Assembly (NCBI GenBank): GCA_018402085.1
Contig: JAGYJM010000001.1
Location: forward strand, 216,562 to 280,561
Reading direction: 5' to 3'
Length of the DNA stretch: 64,000 nucleotides
Source: Flavobacteriales bacterium
Lineage (GTDB): Bacteria; Bacteroidota; Bacteroidia; Flavobacteriales_D; Sanyastnellaceae
Made by a program: the position numbers and the translations under genes. The notes under the pieces were generated by a model. That model was given only the letters and a program-made list of their open reading frames with translations. It did not search any database and was not told the DNA's origin. This document shows positions 44,481 to 51,770 of the stretch, piece after piece (the stretch's first letter is position 1; each line of letters begins with the position of its first letter).

Positions 44481-47462
44481 TCAGCTGTCAAGGGTTTGCT
44501 TCACCTCGACTTCTTCAAAGGCTTCGATGTTGTCACCTACTTTAATGTCATTGAAGCGGTCAACATTCAGACCACATTCATAGCCTTTCGACACTTCTTT
44601 TACGTCGTCTTTGAAACGCTTGAGCGAGCCAAGCTCACCGGTGTAGATCACAATTCCGTCGCGGATCACGCGCACTTTATTGTTTCGATTGATCTTGCCG
44701 TCAAGCACGAAGCAACCAGCGATGGTACCCACTTTGGAGATTTTGAATGTTTCGCGGATTTCGGCTGTACCAACGACTTTCTCTTCAATTTTCGCTGAGA
44801 GCATGCCTTCCATGGCTTCTTTCATCTCCTCGATGGCTTTGTAGATCACCGAGTACAGCTTGATTTGAATTTCTTCGTTTTCAGCGAGTTTACGCGCGCT
44901 GGCCGACGGGCGCACCTGGAAGCCGATGATGATGGCATCTGAGGCAGAAGCCAGCAAGACATCGCTCTCTGAAATCTGCCCTACCGCCTTGTGAATGATG
45001 TTGACCTGAATCTTCTCAGTTGAGAGTTTCTGGAGCGAGTCGCTGAGTGCTTCTATGGAGCCGTCAACGTCACCTTTCACAATAAGGTTAAGCTCTTTGA
45101 ACTCTCCGATGGCGATTCGGCGTCCAATTTCTTCGATGGTAATGTGGCGTTGCGTACGAACCCCTTGTTCGCGTTGCAGTTGCTGGCGTTTGACGGCAAT
45201 GTTTCGCGCTTCTTTTTCGTCTTCGAGCACGTGGAATTTATCACCTGCAGACGCTGCGCCGCTGAGTCCGAGCATTGAAACCGGCATGGATGGTCCGGCT
45301 TCTTCAATGCGTTGACCGCGTTCGTTGTACATTGCTTTGACACGACCGCTGTACTGTCCTGCCAGCACAGAGTCACCTACCCTGAGGGTACCTCCTTCAA
45401 CGAGGAGTGTAGAAACGTAACCACGACCTTTATCGAGTTGTGACTCGACTACGGTACCTGTGGCGCGTTTATTCGGATCAGCTTTCAGCTCGAGCAGTTC
45501 GGCTTCAAGCAGCACTTTTTCAAGCAAGTCTTCGATTCCTTCTCCTTTTTTCGCGGAGATTTCCTGGGCCTGATATTTTCCTCCCCAGTCTTCAACGAGG
45601 ATATTCATTTTCGAGAGTTCTTCGCGGATTTTTTCGGCGTTAGCTCCCGGTTTATCGATTTTATTGAAGGCAAACACCATTGGGATATCTGCAGCTTGCG
45701 CGTGGTTGATAGCCTCAATGGTTTGTGGCATCACGGAGTCATCGGCGGCGATTACGATGATGGCGAGGTCAGTGACCTGCGCACCTCTTGCCCGCATGGC
45801 GGTAAATGCTTCGTGACCAGGTGTATCGAGGAAGGTGATGGTTTTTCCGTCAGGGAGTTCGACGTTGTAGGCGCCGATATGCTGTGTGATTCCTCCGGCC
45901 TCTCCGGCAATTACATTTGCGCGACGAACGCGGTCGAGCAGAGAGGTTTTACCGTGGTCAACGTGCCCCATTACTGTGACAATCGGCGGGCGAGCCTGCA
46001 GGTTTTCGGGGGCGTCTTCTTCTTCAGGAATGGATTCCTGAACTTCTGCACTTACAAATTCGACGCTATATCCGAACTCTTCAGCGATGATCTGAATGGT
46101 TTCGGCATCGAGGCGCTGGTTGATAGACACCATGATACCGAGGGTCATGCAAGCGCTGATGACATCATTCACCTGCGCGTCCATCATCGTGGCGAGCTCT
46201 GACACGGTTACGAACTCGGTCAGTTTAAGCTGCTTCGATTCTTCTTCGAGTCTTTGTGCTTCTTCTTCTTGCTTAGCAGCTACGGCATCACGTTTCGCGC
46301 GGCGCAGTTTCGAAGATTTCGATTTTTTACCACCGCTGAGGCGCGCGAGTGTTTCTTTGATTTCTTTTTGGATGTCAGCGTCTGACACCTCTGTTTTCGC
46401 ATCCTTCTTCTTGCCTCGAGCGCTTCCTCCGCCTCTTTGATCGGTGCGTGACTGGGTATCAACATCGACTTTAGAGATGCGTTTGCGTTTGCGTTTTTTG
46501 CGGAGATCACTGTCAGCAGAAGATGCGACCGGTTTTTTCTTTTTGCGCTCTTCTTTGAGCTCAATTTTACCGACAACTTTTGGCCCGGAGAGTTTTTGCG
46601 CTTCGGCTTTCACCAATTCTTTTGGTGCGGGTTTTTCTTCTTTCGGCTTTGTTTGTTCTTCTGCTTTTTCGGCGGCTACGGGTTTTTCTTCTTTCGGCTT
46701 CGTTTCTTCTTCCTTCTTCGCTGCAGGAGGGGCTTCCTGGTTTTCGGTTTTCTTCTTTTTCTTTTTGGTATCGAATTTACCGAGGTCCATTTTCCCGACG
46801 ACCTTTGGTCCTACGTGGGCTGGTTTTTCGACTTCTTTCGGTTCTTCCGGGGCTTCCTGCGTTTTGTTAGGCGCTTCCGGTTTGATTTCTTCTTTTGGAG
46901 TGTCTTCCGGGGTTTCGGCTTTCGCTTTCGGGGTTTCTGCCTCGACCGGTTTATCTTCAGCCGTTGCTTTTTCTTCGCTTTTCACCGGTTCTTCAACCTT
47001 AGCCGGTTCTTCGGCCTTCACCGGTTCTTCGGTTTTGGCAGGTTCTTCAGCCTTGGCGGGTTCTTCGGGCTTCGGAGTTTCTTCAGCTTTTGGGGCTTCT
47101 TTTTCCGGGCTTTCTTTTTTGGAAGGGCTTACACCGGGAGGCAATTCAGACTTCTGGAATTTCGACAAGTCGATTTCCTCTTCTTCTTCCTGCGGTTTTT
47201 CCTGCTCCTTCTTGGTGGATTCCAAAGTAACGGTTTCACGTTCCTGGCTAGGACGCGAGACGCTCTTTGATTTCTCCTTGAGTTCTTTCTCGACCGCAAA
47301 TGCTGCCCGAATCAGGTCATACTGTTCGTGGTCGATCTTGGTATTGGGTTTACCATCGACTTCAAATCCCTTTCCGTCAAGGAATTCCACGATTGTACCG
47401 AGCCCGATATTGAACTCTTTGGCGACTTTACTAAGACGTACCGGCTTTTTAACTTCCGACAT
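44481..47462 (-). CDS. infB: Translation initiation factor IF-2
   Basis: The 993-residue GTPase has the G domain with [12 protein letters not shown] (about 496-507), DTPGHEAF and NKIDKPGA, and the C-terminal IF-2 domains ending in [23 protein letters not shown]. The N-terminal 440 residues are charged low complexity: IF2_N-like [24 protein letters not shown], then a long K/E/P repeat (KAEEPAK, KTEEPVK, about 110-290). Such extensions are common in Bacteroidota. IF-2 delivers initiator tRNA to the 30S subunit. It ends the rimP-nusA-infB operon. Confidence 0.98.
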
Positions 47463-47508: not shown

Positions 47509-48744
47509 TCAATCGAACTCTGACTTAAGGATGCGCGTCACTTCGCGCACGGTTTCAATTTCGAGGTCTGTCCTCTTCGCGAGGTCTTCCTCATTCAGAT
47601 CGAGTACGCTTCGTGCCGTGTCGCACCCGATGGCTTTGAGAGCATCGATAATCCAGCTATCGATTTCATCTGCAAACTCTTCCAGTTCAACGTCGTCAAG
47701 TTCCGCTTCTGATTCACGGTACACGTCAATGTCGAAGCCGGTGAGTTTACTGGCTAGTTTGATATTGTGTCCGCCTTTGCCAATGGCGAGAGACACTTGG
47801 TCAGGCTTCAGGAAAACATCGGCCTTCTTATTCTCATTGTCAAGTGTGATCGACGAAATTTTTGCCGGAGACAATGCCCGGGCGATCAATAGCTGATCGT
47901 TTTCCGTGTAATTGATCACATCGATATTCTCGTTCTTGAGTTCACGTACAATACTGTGAATACGAGCGCCTTTCATTCCTACACAGGCGCCTACCGGGTC
48001 AATTCGATCATCGTAAGACTCTACGGCAACCTTGGCTCTTTCGCCTGGTTCGCGAACGATCTTTTTGATGGTAATCAATCCGTCAAACACTTCCGGCACT
48101 TCTTGTTCGAACAGACGCTCGAGGAATTCAGGAGCGGTGCGACTGAGAATGATGCGCGGATTGTTGTTACGCATATCGACCTCTGCCACCACAGCCCGTA
48201 CGGTATCTCCTTTTTTGAAGAAGTCAGAAGGGATCTGGTGCGCGCGCGGCATCACCAGTTCATTGTCTTCATCATCAATGATAAGGATTTCACGTTTCCA
48301 AATCTGGTAAACCTCTCCGGAGATGATATCACCAACTCGCTCTTTGTACTTCTGATAGATGTGATCTTTTTCAAGGTCAAGTACACGGCTCACGAGGTTC
48401 TGGCGCATGGCCAACACAGCGCGACGACCGAAGTCTTCGATCTTGATTTCTTCAGATACCTCCTCACCTATTTCAAAGTCATCTTCAATTTTCAGCGCTT
48501 GCGAGAGCTCAATTTCGAGGTTCTCGTCTTCTACTTCACCGTCTTCAACGATTTCTCGGTTGCGCCAAATTTCAAGGTCACCTTTTTCAGGGTTGATGAT
48601 AATGTCAAAATTATCATCAGCGCCATAGCGCTTGATGATCATTCCTCTGAAAACATCCTCAAGGATCGCGAGCATCGTTTGGCGATCGATGTTTTTGAAC
48701 TCTTTGAATTCCTGAAACGACTCGTTCAGATTGAGCACATTCAT
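47509..48744 (-). CDS. nusA: Transcription termination/antitermination protein NusA
   Basis: The 411-residue protein has the N-terminal RNA polymerase-binding domain, an S1 domain (about 135-200, GDIISGEVYQIWKREILI), and two KH domains with GACVGMKGARIHSIVREL and the later VSLAIGKGGHNIKLAS. A short C-terminal helix-hairpin-like segment (LDLNEEDLAKRTDLEIETV) replaces the two acidic repeats of E. coli NusA. NusA modulates pausing, termination and antitermination. It lies between rimP (6-bp gap) and infB (46-bp gap). A hairpin in the operon leader could be its own target. Confidence 0.97.
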   Translation of the reverse strand: MNVLNLNESFQEFKEFKNIDRQTMLAILEDVFRGMIIKRYGADDNFDIIINPEKGDLEIWRNREIVEDGEVEDENLEIELSQALKIEDDFEIGEEVSEEIKIEDFGRRAVLAMRQNLVSRVLDLEKDHIYQKYKERVGDIISGEVYQIWKREILIIDDEDNELVMPRAHQIPSDFFKKGDTVRAVVAEVDMRNNNPRIILSRTAPEFLERLFEQEVPEVFDGLITIKKIVREPGERAKVAVESYDDRIDPVGACVGMKGARIHSIVRELKNENIDVINYTENDQLLIARALSPAKISSITLDNENKKADVFLKPDQVSLAIGKGGHNIKLASKLTGFDIDVYRESEAELDDVELEEFADEIDSWIIDALKAIGCDTARSVLDLNEEDLAKRTDLEIETVREVTRILKSEFD

Positions 48745-48750
48745 TTTTGC

Positions 48751-49218
48751 CTATTTAAATGATAAGACCACACGGGCCTCCACAATCTTTTCAAATTCAA
48801 TATGGTGGTCTTCTTCCACCCACTGTTTAGCCTTGCGGCCTTCTATCCGCTGTTTTTCGCGGGTATGCAATACGATGCCGTTGTCATCCACGGCAGTGAG
48901 CTTGCCTTTCAGCTTGACTCCTTCATCGCGTTTAACGATAAGTTCCCGACCGATGTTTTTCTTGTATTGCCGGCGAACCACAAGAGGTTGGTCGGCTCCC
49001 GGTGAAGAGACATTGAGCGAAAAATCTTCCTCTTCACGATCGAGCGACCCTTCAATGATGCGGCTCACTTTCACGCAGTCATCAATCGAAATACCCTCTT
49101 CGTTATCGATGAGTACCCTGATGTCATTATTGCCGGAAACGTCAATGCTCACGGCAAACAACGTACTGTCTGCGATGGCTTCTCCCAGGAGACGTTCGAT
49201 GTATTCCTTCGTGATCAT
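48751..49218 (-). CDS. rimP: Ribosome maturation factor RimP
   Basis: The protein has 155 residues from ATG 49218 (MITKEYIERLLGE). A longer frame to 49284 reads through the leader hairpin and the promoter and is rejected. The RimP pattern is visible in GISIDDCVKVSRIIEGSLDREEEDFSLNVSSPG, split as a short N-terminal alpha/beta domain and an SH3-like C-terminus with KGKLTAVDDNGIVL. It helps assemble the 30S subunit. It is first in the operon with nusA and infB, the order found in most bacteria. Confidence 0.95.
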   Translation of the reverse strand: MITKEYIERLLGEAIADSTLFAVSIDVSGNNDIRVLIDNEEGISIDDCVKVSRIIEGSLDREEEDFSLNVSSPGADQPLVVRRQYKKNIGRELIVKRDEGVKLKGKLTAVDDNGIVLHTREKQRIEGRKAKQWVEEDHHIEFEKIVEARVVLSFK

Positions 49219-49230
49219 TTTCGTACAGGC

Positions 49231-49256
49231 AATAAAAAGAGGGGTTTCCACCCCTC
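49231..49256 (-). terminator. Attenuator-like intrinsic terminator in the rimP-nusA-infB leader
   Basis: On the minus strand GAGGGGT pairs with ACCCCTC around a GGAA (GNRA-type) loop and is followed by TTTTTATT. It lies between the promoter box (49282-49289) and the rimP ATG (49218), so readthrough is needed for expression of the operon. It looks complete as an intrinsic terminator for leftward transcription. Confidence 0.75.
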
Positions 49257-49281
49257 CCCGTTTGCATCCGTTTTGCTTGTG

Positions 49282-49289
49282 CAAATATA
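49282..49289 (-). promoter_or_regulatory. -7 promoter box (TATATTTG) for rimP-nusA-infB
   Basis: This is an exact TAnnTTTG match on the minus strand, 63 nt before the rimP ATG. Start of transcription about 7 nt on would give a leader of roughly 57 nt that contains the hairpin at 49239-49256. Confidence 0.55.
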
Positions 49290-49432
49290 ATAAATCGCCT
49301 GACCTGTAAGCTCAAACCTGACAATCTTTTGGTTTACATGACAAATCGCATAAAATCAATTTCTCTGCGTTAGGTGTGGAAAACGCACTCTTCATCAGTC
49401 GGTCGCGTCAAAATGAGAGCGTTACTTTTGTC

Positions 49433-49440
49433 ATAAAGTT
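49433..49440 (+). promoter_or_regulatory. -7 promoter box (TACTTTTG) for the MORN-repeat gene
   Basis: This is an exact TAnnTTTG match with 7 nt between box and the ATG at 49448. It supports that start over the upstream one at 49376 and suggests a leaderless transcript. Confidence 0.5.
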
Positions 49441-49447
49441 ACTCCTT

Positions 49448-51028
49448 ATGCGTTTACTGCTGTTCCTCATTTTAGTCGCTCCCCTCACTTCGCAGGCCCA
49501 AAAGCAGCACTACGTTGACTTTTACGAATCCGGAAAAAAGCGCGCCGAAGGCTTCTATGAACGTGGTATAGAGCACGGAGAGTGGAAGTGGTGGCATGAA
49601 GATGGCACCCTCAAAGAGCACTCTTTCTACTGGTTCGGTGATCTCCATGGCCCGGTGCTTACTTTTCATACGAATGGTCAGCTCATGAACGAAGGATACT
49701 TTATCAAAGGGGTCCAAGACAGCATTATGCGCACCTTCGCAGCTGACAGCGTGCTCCTCGAAGAGGGCCACTATAAAGAAGGGCTCAAAAATGGAGAATG
49801 GCAGTATTATTTCCCGGATGGCCAACTTATGGTGCGCGAATTTTACGCAGATAGTGCAATGCAGTTGCTTTTTTATCGCCGTAAAAACGGCGGACGGGAG
49901 AAGCTGATTGAAGACGGAAAGGGAACACTTCGGGAATGGTTCGAGAATGGACAATTGCGAAAAGAAACGGCGTACTACGATGGTTTTCCAAATGGCGAGC
50001 ATAAGGAGTGGTTTGTGGACGGCACCCTGCAAATGGAAGGACGTTATGTGGATGGATTGCGCGACGGTAAATGGACAAGCTTCTACTTCAGCGGGAGGCC
50101 TGAGAAGGTTGCCCATTACTCAGATGGGGTGCTTAATGGATCTTTCAAACGGTACTTCAGAAATGAAAACACCGATGTAGAAGGCAATTACACCTTGGGT
50201 GAAAAAAGCGGCGTCTGGAAGTGGTTTTTTAAAGAAGGAGGAACTGATATGGAAGGCCCCTTCGTTAAAGGAAAGCAGCAAGGCACCTGGACCTATTACT
50301 ACGGAAACGGCAATGTGCATTATACCGGGGAGTACGCAGAAGGCCAAATGGAAGGCGAGTGGACGTGGTACTACTTTGACGGGGAGTTATGGAAAAAGGG
50401 CAGCTACAGCAGCGGAATGAAAGACGGCTTCTGGGAGTATTGGTTCGAAAACGGTCAGGAACTGATGTCTGGTCACTTTGAGAACGATCTGGAAGAGGGA
50501 GAATGGGAAAGCTGGTATGACAATGGCCGGCAAAAAGATCGTGGTGCTTACAAAGAGGGTAAGATGAACGGCGCCTGGGAGGGCTGGTACCCGAATGGCG
50601 TGGTGCATTATCGCGGTAGCTGGAAAGATGACCTCCGCACGGGAAACTGGGAATACTATTACGAGAACGGACAACTGCACGAGAAAGGGGCTTATAACGC
50701 AGAAGGTCAGAAAAGTGGTGAGTGGGTCACCCACAACCCTTCAGGAAGGATGGAAATGCGGGGTGAATATCAAAAGGGTGTACCACACGGAGACTGGCTG
50801 TACAACTACCCCAATGGCTCGCCGCAACGATCGTGCAGTTACGATGAAGGTCAGCTCTCAGGGCTCGTTAAAGACTATGATCGGCGCGGACAGTTGATCC
50901 GTGAAGCCGGCTACAAGAACAATCGGCGCCATGGCAAGTTTATCGTGTATAACGAGAAAACCGGACAGATCGATCAGCACATGATCTTCGAAAACGGAAT
51001 GGTGGAGAAGGTCATTGTGGCTAAGTAG
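49448..51028 (+). CDS. Exported MORN-repeat (YwqK-type) protein
   Basis: The protein has 526 residues from ATG 49448, which begins a signal peptide (RLLLFLILVAPLTSQAQ). The rest is about 20 tandem MORN_2 repeats of about 23 residues with the pattern G.W.(Y/W)(Y/W)..G.....G.Y..G...G. Databases often name such proteins 'YwqK family antitoxin', but the signal peptide indicates export and there is no toxin gene beside it. MORN repeats form elongated beta sheets and probably act in surface or periplasmic binding. Function is unknown. A CATC-hairpin element follows 8 bp after the stop. Confidence 0.88.
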   Translation: MRLLLFLILVAPLTSQAQKQHYVDFYESGKKRAEGFYERGIEHGEWKWWHEDGTLKEHSFYWFGDLHGPVLTFHTNGQLMNEGYFIKGVQDSIMRTFAADSVLLEEGHYKEGLKNGEWQYYFPDGQLMVREFYADSAMQLLFYRRKNGGREKLIEDGKGTLREWFENGQLRKETAYYDGFPNGEHKEWFVDGTLQMEGRYVDGLRDGKWTSFYFSGRPEKVAHYSDGVLNGSFKRYFRNENTDVEGNYTLGEKSGVWKWFFKEGGTDMEGPFVKGKQQGTWTYYYGNGNVHYTGEYAEGQMEGEWTWYYFDGELWKKGSYSSGMKDGFWEYWFENGQELMSGHFENDLEEGEWESWYDNGRQKDRGAYKEGKMNGAWEGWYPNGVVHYRGSWKDDLRTGNWEYYYENGQLHEKGAYNAEGQKSGEWVTHNPSGRMEMRGEYQKGVPHGDWLYNYPNGSPQRSCSYDEGQLSGLVKDYDRRGQLIREAGYKNNRRHGKFIVYNEKTGQIDQHMIFENGMVEKVIVAK

Positions 51029-51035
51029 ACCGTCG

Positions 51036-51055
51036 CATCCGCCGTTTTTACGGCG
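51036..51055 (+). repeat. CATC-hairpin element 11
   Basis: CATC is followed by CGCCGT, loop TTTT and ACGGCG, then TAAAA. It lies in the 58-bp gap between the MORN-repeat gene and the AlbA_2 gene. Confidence 0.87.
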
Positions 51056-51086
51056 TAAAAAATCACTACCTGAAGCGCATACACCC

Positions 51087-51770
51087 ATGTCGTATGTCAC
51101 TAAAATGATTGAAGAGGGTGAGCACCAGCAGCAAGACTTCAAGGTGCGCATTGAGGATGCGCGAAAGATTGCTAAAACGCTGGTAGCCTTTGCCAATACG
51201 GATGGGGGAAGACTGCTCATCGGTGTGAAAGACAATGGCACAGTGAGCGGAGTAGACGTACAGGAAGAGTTTCACATGATTGAGGCTGCTGCTGAAATGT
51301 ACTGCAAGCCGGTGGTGCCTTTCAAGACCCAGGTATGGAAATCCAACTATCGGTCTGTGCTCGAAATTCAGATAGAAGCATCGCTGAAGCGTCCACACTT
51401 TGCTGAACCGGAGCCGGATAATTGGGCTGCTTATCAGCGGGTTGACGACCGAAATGTGAAAGCAAACGGTGTGCTGCTCAAAGTGTGGCAGCATCGTTTC
51501 AATGAAAATATTGGTGATTTCAAGTACACCCGGCCGGTGAGAAAACTCTTCAGTGCCCTCCGTGAGCAGAAAAGGCTGGGCTTTCGTAAAGTCTTAAGAA
51601 TCGTGCGCCTGAATAAAGAGAAGACGGAACGTTTGCTGGCGCAACTTGTAAGCTGGGAAGTAATTGATATGGAGTTCACCGACACCGGGTGCTATTTTTG
51701 CCTTAGCGATGAATCGCTACCAGATGAGTGGGAAGAACAATACAGGAGGTCAACACCTGATGATAACTGA
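51087..51770 (+). CDS. AlbA_2 (Schlafen-like) domain putative nucleic-acid-binding protein
   Basis: The protein has 227 residues from ATG 51087; a longer frame from 51015 would start inside the preceding gene and cross the repeat. EGEHQQQDFKV (about 9-19) and KTLVAFANTDGGRLLIGVKDNGTVSGV (about 28-54) are the AlbA_2 signature, followed by EIQIEAS and RVDDRNVKAN. The C-terminus (about 150-225) reads like a winged helix (FRKVLRIVRLNKEKTERLLAQLVSWEVI). Members are thought to bind DNA or RNA or act in stress regulation. The specific role is unknown. Confidence 0.85.
   Translation: MSYVTKMIEEGEHQQQDFKVRIEDARKIAKTLVAFANTDGGRLLIGVKDNGTVSGVDVQEEFHMIEAAAEMYCKPVVPFKTQVWKSNYRSVLEIQIEASLKRPHFAEPEPDNWAAYQRVDDRNVKANGVLLKVWQHRFNENIGDFKYTRPVRKLFSALREQKRLGFRKVLRIVRLNKEKTERLLAQLVSWEVIDMEFTDTGCYFCLSDESLPDEWEEQYRRSTPDDN

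What the first reader, a model, noticed from the sequence alone, without database searches (positions are those of the whole stretch)
49231..49289. Attenuator hairpin in the leader of rimP-nusA-infB
On the leftward strand a promoter box (TATATTTG) is followed by a stem GAGGGGT/ACCCCTC with GGAA loop and TTTTTATT before the rimP ATG. It has the form of a complete intrinsic terminator in the leader of the operon that encodes NusA. In E. coli the nusA operon is controlled by NusA feedback on leader terminators, but the layout there is different. Feedback control by readthrough here is an inference.
Basis: partly seen in the sequence, partly recalled or inferred. Interest (0 to 1): 0.6.

Follow-up and report, generated by a model that had tools for sequence, protein, structure and literature searches.

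The report
Leader terminator of the nusA operon
A small hairpin that can stop transcription sits just after the promoter of the rimP-nusA-infB operon in nearly all sampled relatives, so the operon probably limits its own NusA, a known kind of control found here in a group where its function had not been stated in the papers I could search.

Summary
On the minus strand a TATATTTG promoter box (49289-49282) is followed by a 7-bp G-rich hairpin (49256-49239), TTTTTATT (49238-49231) and the rimP ATG (49218). One script finds promoter, hairpin and T tract in this layout in 170 of 176 distinct rimP leaders of the order and its neighbours (shuffled: 1 of 176) and 89 of 101 in a class-wide sample (shuffled: 0 of 101); 7 of those 12 misses show the hairpin by eye, 5 have none. 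The hairpin is locked to the promoter (gap sd 4-5 nt), not to the ATG (sd 14-24 nt). Tests for an antiterminator and for a leader start codon gave no excess. Of ten genomes with nusA but no detected RimP, nine have a leader hairpin directly before nusA-infB (six by the strict script), so it follows nusA-infB, not rimP. Best reading: an intrinsic-terminator attenuator through which NusA limits its own operon. This is the 'rimP-leader' of Naville and Gautheret 2010; NusA feedback is shown in B. subtilis. It does not match Rfam RF01770. New here: the promoter-locked form across the class and its persistence without rimP. Termination and NusA feedback remain inferred.

The parts
49313..49316 (-). 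possible -33 element TTTG, 23 nt before the -7 box (weak)
   Evidence: sequence; the TTTG -33 consensus is recalled, spacing not tested
49282..49289 (-). -7 promoter box TATATTTG (consensus TAnnTTTG)
   Evidence: sequence; TAnnTTTG as the -7 box of sigma-A in a flavobacterium is stated in PMC9723704 (passage); box of this kind before the hairpin in 170 of 176 leaders
49273..49276 (-). predicted transcription start, about 6-9 nt after the -7 box
   Evidence: inference from recalled general spacing, not mapped
49250..49256 (-). 5' arm of terminator stem, GAGGGGT
   Evidence: G exceeds C on this arm in 175 of 175 leaders against 86 of 146 other strong terminator-like hairpins
49246..49249 (-). 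loop GGAA
   Evidence: loops vary among relatives
49239..49245 (-). 3' arm of terminator stem, ACCCCTC
49231..49238 (-). T tract TTTTTATT; RNA 3' ends predicted near here (RNA of about 43-46 nt)
   Evidence: T excess at tract positions 1-8 and not at 9-10 across 175 leaders (the script itself asked for at least 5 T in 8)
48751..49218 (-). rimP
   Evidence: Pfam RimP_N
47509..48744 (-). nusA, probable regulator and regulated gene
   Evidence: Pfam NusA_N, S1, KH
44481..47462 (-). infB
   Evidence: Pfam IF-2

Best explanation
The element is a promoter-proximal intrinsic terminator used as an attenuator. RNA polymerase starts about 17-20 nt before the hairpin (inferred). When the hairpin and U tract have been made, part of the polymerases release an RNA of roughly 45 nt and the rest read on into rimP-nusA-infB. 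NusA, which stimulates intrinsic termination, raises the fraction that stops, so high NusA lowers transcription of its own operon; no antiterminator is needed. Shown by sequence: the parts, their conservation and spacing, and that the leader stays with nusA-infB where rimP is not found. Inferred: that termination happens, that it is partial, and that NusA sets it.
For: Layout promoter + hairpin + T tract in 170 of 176 distinct leaders, shuffled 1 of 176; class sample 89 of 101, shuffled 0 of 101; 7 of the 12 class misses show the hairpin by eye. T excess at tract positions 1-8 and not at 9-10. Stem arms co-vary: real partners 100% paired, swapped partners 82%, sd 1.1 points (the real arms were picked as paired, so the swap is the informative side). 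Promoter-to-stem gap sd 4.0 and 4.9 nt against stem-to-ATG sd 14.4 and 23.7 nt. The layout occurs at no other place in the window and at 3 other places in 1,086,094 strand-bases of 79 loci, against 74 at rimP. No excess of antiterminator complements: 25 of 170 and 12 of 89 leaders, shuffled 18 and 9; no excess of ATG between promoter and stem: 83 of 169, expected 78. Nine of ten genomes with NusA and no detected RimP have a leader hairpin before nusA-infB: six by the strict script, one with a 4-bp stem, two with a hairpin 51-52 nt from the box; shuffles of these gave 0 or 1 of 50 each. Precedent: B. subtilis nusA (PMC12288461, passage) and the rimP-leader family (PMC2965389, passages).
Against: No RNA 3'-end data for this organism or a relative were available to me. 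Hairpin and U tract look strong, while NusA-dependent terminators in B. subtilis tend to be weak (recalled from Mondal 2016, not held). Five of 101 class genomes have rimP but no such leader (families f96 and f89), and G384, a 0.49-Mb genome with nusA and no RimP hit, has none, so it is dispensable there. The reverse strand of the leaders also scores as terminator-like in 74 of 176. nusA and infB stay together in the nine genomes, so infB as the target cannot be excluded.
Confidence: 0.68

Rival explanations
1. Constitutive attenuator: the terminator sets a fixed level of readthrough, without feedback from NusA.
For: Nothing in the leader itself is seen to sense anything; termination by hairpin and U tract needs no factor. 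The conservation data fit equally.
Against: A fixed level could be set by a weaker promoter; retention with nusA-infB also where rimP is not found is easier to explain by feedback; NusA feedback is reported for B. subtilis (PMC12288461, passage).
Confidence: 0.17
2. Attenuator that answers to another factor: NusG, RimP, IF2, an RNA-binding protein, a nucleotide pool or the short leader RNA itself.
For: A compact leader could be read by any factor acting on early elongation; NusG is also an intrinsic termination factor in B. subtilis (PMC8060035, title and passages).
Against: RimP cannot be the sensor in the nine genomes where it is not found. No conserved loop for a binding protein: GNRA in 11 of 46 tetraloops, loop lengths 3-12. 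IF2 is not excluded.
Confidence: 0.1
3. mRNA 5' stabilising hairpin or translational control hairpin, the T tract being incidental.
For: The hairpin lies 8-60 nt before the start codon in 169 leaders, and Shine-Dalgarno sequences are absent in flavobacteria (PMC9723704, passage).
Against: T excess over about 8 tract positions; spacing is locked to the promoter and not to the ATG, with one case, L309, of 33 nt to the promoter box and more than 200 nt to the ATG.
Confidence: 0.04
4. Terminator of the upstream gene, read by the first reader as a leader element.
For: Some relatives have a codirectional upstream gene, for example a tRNA gene in L017 and L068.
Against: In the window the upstream gene is divergent (49376-51028, plus); a promoter box precedes the hairpin closely in 170 of 176 leaders; L247, L254 and L293 have a separate terminator-like hairpin before the promoter box.
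Confidence: 0.01

Closest known systems
rimP-leader of Naville and Gautheret 2010 (PMC2965389; passages read)
   Same: Upstream of rimP-nusA-infB; hairpin with G-rich 5' arm and C-rich 3' arm, T stretch, no antiterminator; NusA proposed as regulator; called the most ubiquitous attenuator.
   Different: Main text names no Bacteroidota ('bacteroid' and 'flavobacter' 0 occurrences; its species tables were not readable here). In the passages read only the distance to the gene start is given; here the distance to the promoter box is narrow (8-35 nt).
NusA-autoregulated leader terminator of B. subtilis nusA (Mondal 2016; not held, told in PMC12288461, passage)
   Same: Intrinsic terminator in the leader; NusA-stimulated termination limits the operon. 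That no antiterminator is involved is recalled from Mondal 2016.
   Different: B. subtilis leader is 180 nt (PMC2965389, passage); here the terminated RNA would be about 45 nt. NusA dependence is not tested here.
E. coli metY-rimP-nusA-infB leader with t1 and t2; Rfam RF01770 'rimP'
   Same: Terminators upstream of rimP; NusA regulates the operon (PMC6511841, passages).
   Different: tRNA gene and several promoters in the leader, two terminators; RF01770 (102 positions) gives no match at the window leader.
Structured 5' element upstream of rimP in Flavobacterium psychrophilum (PMC9723704; passages and section 19 read)
   Same: Probably the same element; reported as present in other genera of Flavobacteriaceae.
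   Different: Reported without function, without NusA ('nusA' 0 occurrences) and as an original element without Rfam hit. Its sequence was not seen, so identity is inferred.

Membership tests
rimP-leader (Naville and Gautheret 2010) | lies upstream of rimP-nusA-infB | tested here: met
   Pfam
rimP-leader (Naville and Gautheret 2010) | hairpin followed by T stretch | tested here: met
   in relatives 175 of 176 leaders, the missing one (L160) has a T tract cut by a start codon set too early
rimP-leader (Naville and Gautheret 2010) | G-rich 5' arm, C-rich 3' arm (GGGc...gCCC) | tested here: met
   G exceeds C on the 5' arm in 175 of 175 leaders, 86 of 146 other strong terminator-like hairpins
rimP-leader (Naville and Gautheret 2010) | no antiterminator structure | tested here: met
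   5-nt complement of the 5' arm upstream in 25 of 170 and 12 of 89, shuffled 18 and 9; a simple test
Rfam RF01770 rimP | covariance model match at gathering score 47 | tested here: not met
   no match in window or leader; 51 weak matches in the genome, all on contig C2 (the leader is on C1), none over cut-off; of 14 control genomes one is over cut-off, not named which
NusA-autoregulated leader (B. subtilis type) | termination stimulated by NusA, operon expression falls with NusA | not testable with these tools
   needs 3'-end mapping at altered NusA
NusA-autoregulated leader (B. subtilis type) | leader belongs to nusA | tested here: met
   present before nusA-infB in nine of ten genomes with NusA and no detected RimP; infB not separable
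NusA-autoregulated leader (B. subtilis type) | long leader (180 nt in B. subtilis; not a defining feature, given for comparison) | tested here: not met
   promoter box to end of T tract is 59 nt in the window; promoter-stem gap 13-34 nt in 170 leaders, 8-35 nt in 89

The most novel reading that the evidence does not exclude
Because the hairpin is held within about 8-35 nt after the -7 box whatever the distance to the gene, the leader may gauge how soon NusA joins RNA polymerase after sigma leaves, rather than how much NusA sits on elongating polymerase: termination at about +45 would happen mainly if NusA has already replaced sigma. That would make it a promoter-locked, minimal feedback device of Bacteroidota, distinct from the long-leader form of B. 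subtilis.
Probability: 0.15. Interest if true: 0.7.

Novelty: new member of a known kind. Interest (0 to 1): 0.45.

Why it matters
It extends NusA-type leader attenuation, reported for B. subtilis and E. coli, to nearly all sampled members of a class in which my paper searches found no statement of it, and it may explain a Flavobacterium 5' element that was reported without function. The genomes without detected RimP act as natural deletions that point to nusA (or infB) as the reason for the leader. The narrow promoter spacing gives a compact, directly testable substrate of about 45 nt for the question how NusA acts on early elongation complexes.

Tried and rejected
Rejected: riboswitch or aptamer (gap between promoter box and stem is 13-34 nt in 170 leaders, 8-35 nt in 89). 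Leader peptide (ATG between promoter and stem in 83 of 169, 78 expected by letter shuffle). Loop-recognising protein (loops vary). Upstream gene's terminator (see rivals).

Led nowhere: RNAalifold on the MAFFT alignment A2 of 100 leaders gave 0 pairs, I think because stems of different loop length fall out of register; I used an arm-swap test instead. No covariance model was built. The pattern TTTG-gap-GGGG-loop-CCCC-NN-TTT has one match in the window's own genome, the leader, but in relatives it is not unique: 67 of 72 genomes match, many more than once and one 14 times; the listed extra matches include likely ordinary terminators and tRNA ends, and the list was cut off by the tool. So uniqueness holds for this genome, not for the family.

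Rows dropped or missed: one locus (L022) had no rimP hit; duplicates and one leader under 60 nt (L044) were dropped before counting. The order set misses L126, L073, L192, L017, L191 and L068; these are among the 175 with a hairpin, but the box, the tract or the spacing did not pass. Phylum-wide sample: 24 of 30 loci with a hairpin by script, that is 19 of 25 outside the class and 5 of 5 inside it; the other six show a hairpin by eye with a bulge or long loop; in some of the 24 the script's choice was not the promoter-proximal hairpin (L205, L215) and in L217-L219 the rimP start is uncertain. In the class sample the script chose another hairpin in L247, L254, L290 and L293 although the leader hairpin is there. 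G382 and G265 gave no NusA hit.

Full report
What is there. The minus strand reads TATATTTG (49289-49282), 25 nt, then GAGGGGT-GGAA-ACCCCTC (49256-49239), TTTTTATT (49238-49231), 12 nt, and the rimP ATG at 49218. rimP, nusA and infB follow. The leader folds at -21.4 kcal/mol, z -3.0 against shuffles. The consensus terminator scan reported none here, I think because three G-U pairs let the stem run into the T tract. The window belongs to a 3.78-Mb genome of 2 contigs; the best NusA matches among named contigs are metagenome-assembled Flavobacteriales and Cryomorphaceae. That the class is Bacteroidia is my inference from those names.

Is it more than chance. I collected rimP leaders from 80 NusA-related contigs and from 120 related genomes, 116 of which gave a RimP match. 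rimP was found in 196 of 197 loci, giving 177 distinct leaders, 176 of at least 60 nt. A terminator-like hairpin lies in 175 of 176; the one miss, L160, has the hairpin but its T tract was cut by a start codon set too early. Controls: dinucleotide shuffles 34 of 880; the stretch 251-400 nt upstream 6 of 174; the reverse strand of the same leaders 74 of 176, which is high, I think because a hairpin is nearly palindromic. Asking for the whole layout, promoter box TAnnTT(T/C)G, 6-36 nt, hairpin, T tract, gives 170 of 176 against 1 of 176 shuffled.

How far it reaches. In a sample of 109 genomes drawn over the class, 101 have RimP. All 101 leaders were scanned. The strict script finds the layout in 89, shuffled 0 of 101. 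Of the 12 misses, seven show promoter box and hairpin by eye (L247, L254, L269, L339, L340, L343, L345: longer loop, one mismatch, or a weaker T tract), and five have none: L319 and L320 of family f96, and L341, L344 and L346 of family f89, where the start codon seems to lie about 9 nt after the box. In a phylum-wide sample a hairpin is found by script in 24 of 30, 19 of the 25 outside the class, often with other letters; some of these picks are uncertain.

What is conserved. T is in excess at tract positions 1 to 8 and not at 9 and 10; the script asked for at least 5 T in 8, which favours this, but almost no leader failed it. Stem letters change while pairing stays: among 87 of 101 dereplicated leaders with six pairs, real arms pair at every position, by selection, and swapped arms at 82%; 19 different 5' arms occur, 50 of the 87 being GAGGGG. 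G exceeds C on the 5' arm in 175 of 175 against 86 of 146 other strong terminator-like hairpins in the window and the 80 loci. The loop is not conserved. The gap from promoter box to stem has sd 4.0 nt (order set) and 4.9 nt (class sample), the distance from stem to ATG sd 14.4 and 23.7 nt. L309 keeps 33 nt to its promoter box with more than 200 nt to its ATG.

Is the layout special to this operon. In the window 56 terminator-like hairpins exist and only this one follows a TAnnTTTG box at 10-33 nt; in 1,086,094 strand-bases of 79 NusA loci there are 74 such places at rimP and 3 elsewhere. A G4/C4 pattern has one match in the own genome, but several per genome in many relatives, so the G-rich hairpin alone is not unique.

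Which gene does it belong to. Ten sampled genomes have NusA but no detected RimP: seven of the class (G377, G383, G384, G400, G412, G431, G440) and three of another class (G225, G276, G312). For nine of them (not G384) the RimP profile gives nothing at E up to 10, and Pfam RimP_N nothing over cut-off while all four control genomes put into the same call pass it. In these nine nusA is followed by a match to infB, in L335 and L336 only to its N-terminal 48 residues. The strict script finds the leader layout before nusA in six: L325, L329, L331, L332 with GGGG arms, L335 and L336 with GGGC...GCCC; L337 passes with a 4-bp stem, and L328 and L330 have a GGAGG...CCTCC hairpin 51-52 nt after the box; each set of 50 shuffles gave 0 or 1. 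G384, a 0.49-Mb genome, has none. So the leader follows nusA-infB and does not need rimP.

How it most likely works. Intrinsic termination shortly after the start, with NusA raising its efficiency, gives negative feedback on NusA. The parts and their conservation are shown; that termination occurs, is partial, and depends on NusA is inferred. There is no excess of antiterminator complements (25 of 170 and 12 of 89 leaders, shuffled 18 and 9) or of start codons before the hairpin (83 of 169, expected 78).

What is known. Naville and Gautheret 2010 (PMC2965389, passages read) described the rimP-leader as the most ubiquitous attenuator, with G-rich 5' arm, no visible antiterminator, and NusA as the likely factor. 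In B. subtilis NusA-stimulated termination in the leader controls nusA (PMC12288461, passage; the original paper by Mondal and others is not held). In E. coli metY and terminators t1 and t2 precede rimP (PMC6511841, passages). [quoted passage not shown] Searches for rimP with Bacteroid, attenuat, leader and terminator, for 'rimP leader' and for nusA with Bacteroides or Bacteroidetes terms listed no paper whose title or start of abstract states NusA feedback for Bacteroidota; this covers the held open library only and most listed papers were not opened. The window leader does not match Rfam RF01770. Hence: a member of the described rimP-leader kind by its sequence features, not a member of the Rfam family, with a compact promoter-locked geometry.

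Noticed in passing
L017:2344-2416 and L068:2328-2401: In two genomes titled Bacteroidales a tRNA-Gln gene lies just upstream of the rimP leader in the same direction, and no TAnnTTTG box stands between, reminiscent of metY before rimP in E. coli.
   Followed up: partly
L341, L344, L346 (family f89) and L319, L320 (family f96): These class members lack the leader hairpin; in f89 rimP appears almost leaderless. NusA of f96 is more divergent from the window's (45-46% identity) than in most others of that call.
   Followed up: partly
G377, G412, G440, G400, G431, G383, G225, G276, G312 (loci L325, L328-L332, L335-L337): No detected RimP in nine genomes of four families with 95-100% completeness, although nusA-infB is there.
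   Followed up: partly
window 49376-51028 (+): Divergent neighbour is a long MORN_2-repeat protein, by eye with a signal peptide; by eye a similar MORN-like end lies upstream of nusA in L325.
   Followed up: no
window 51015-51770 (+): Protein with a Schlafen/AlbA_2 domain (PF04326, 7.4e-20).
   Followed up: no
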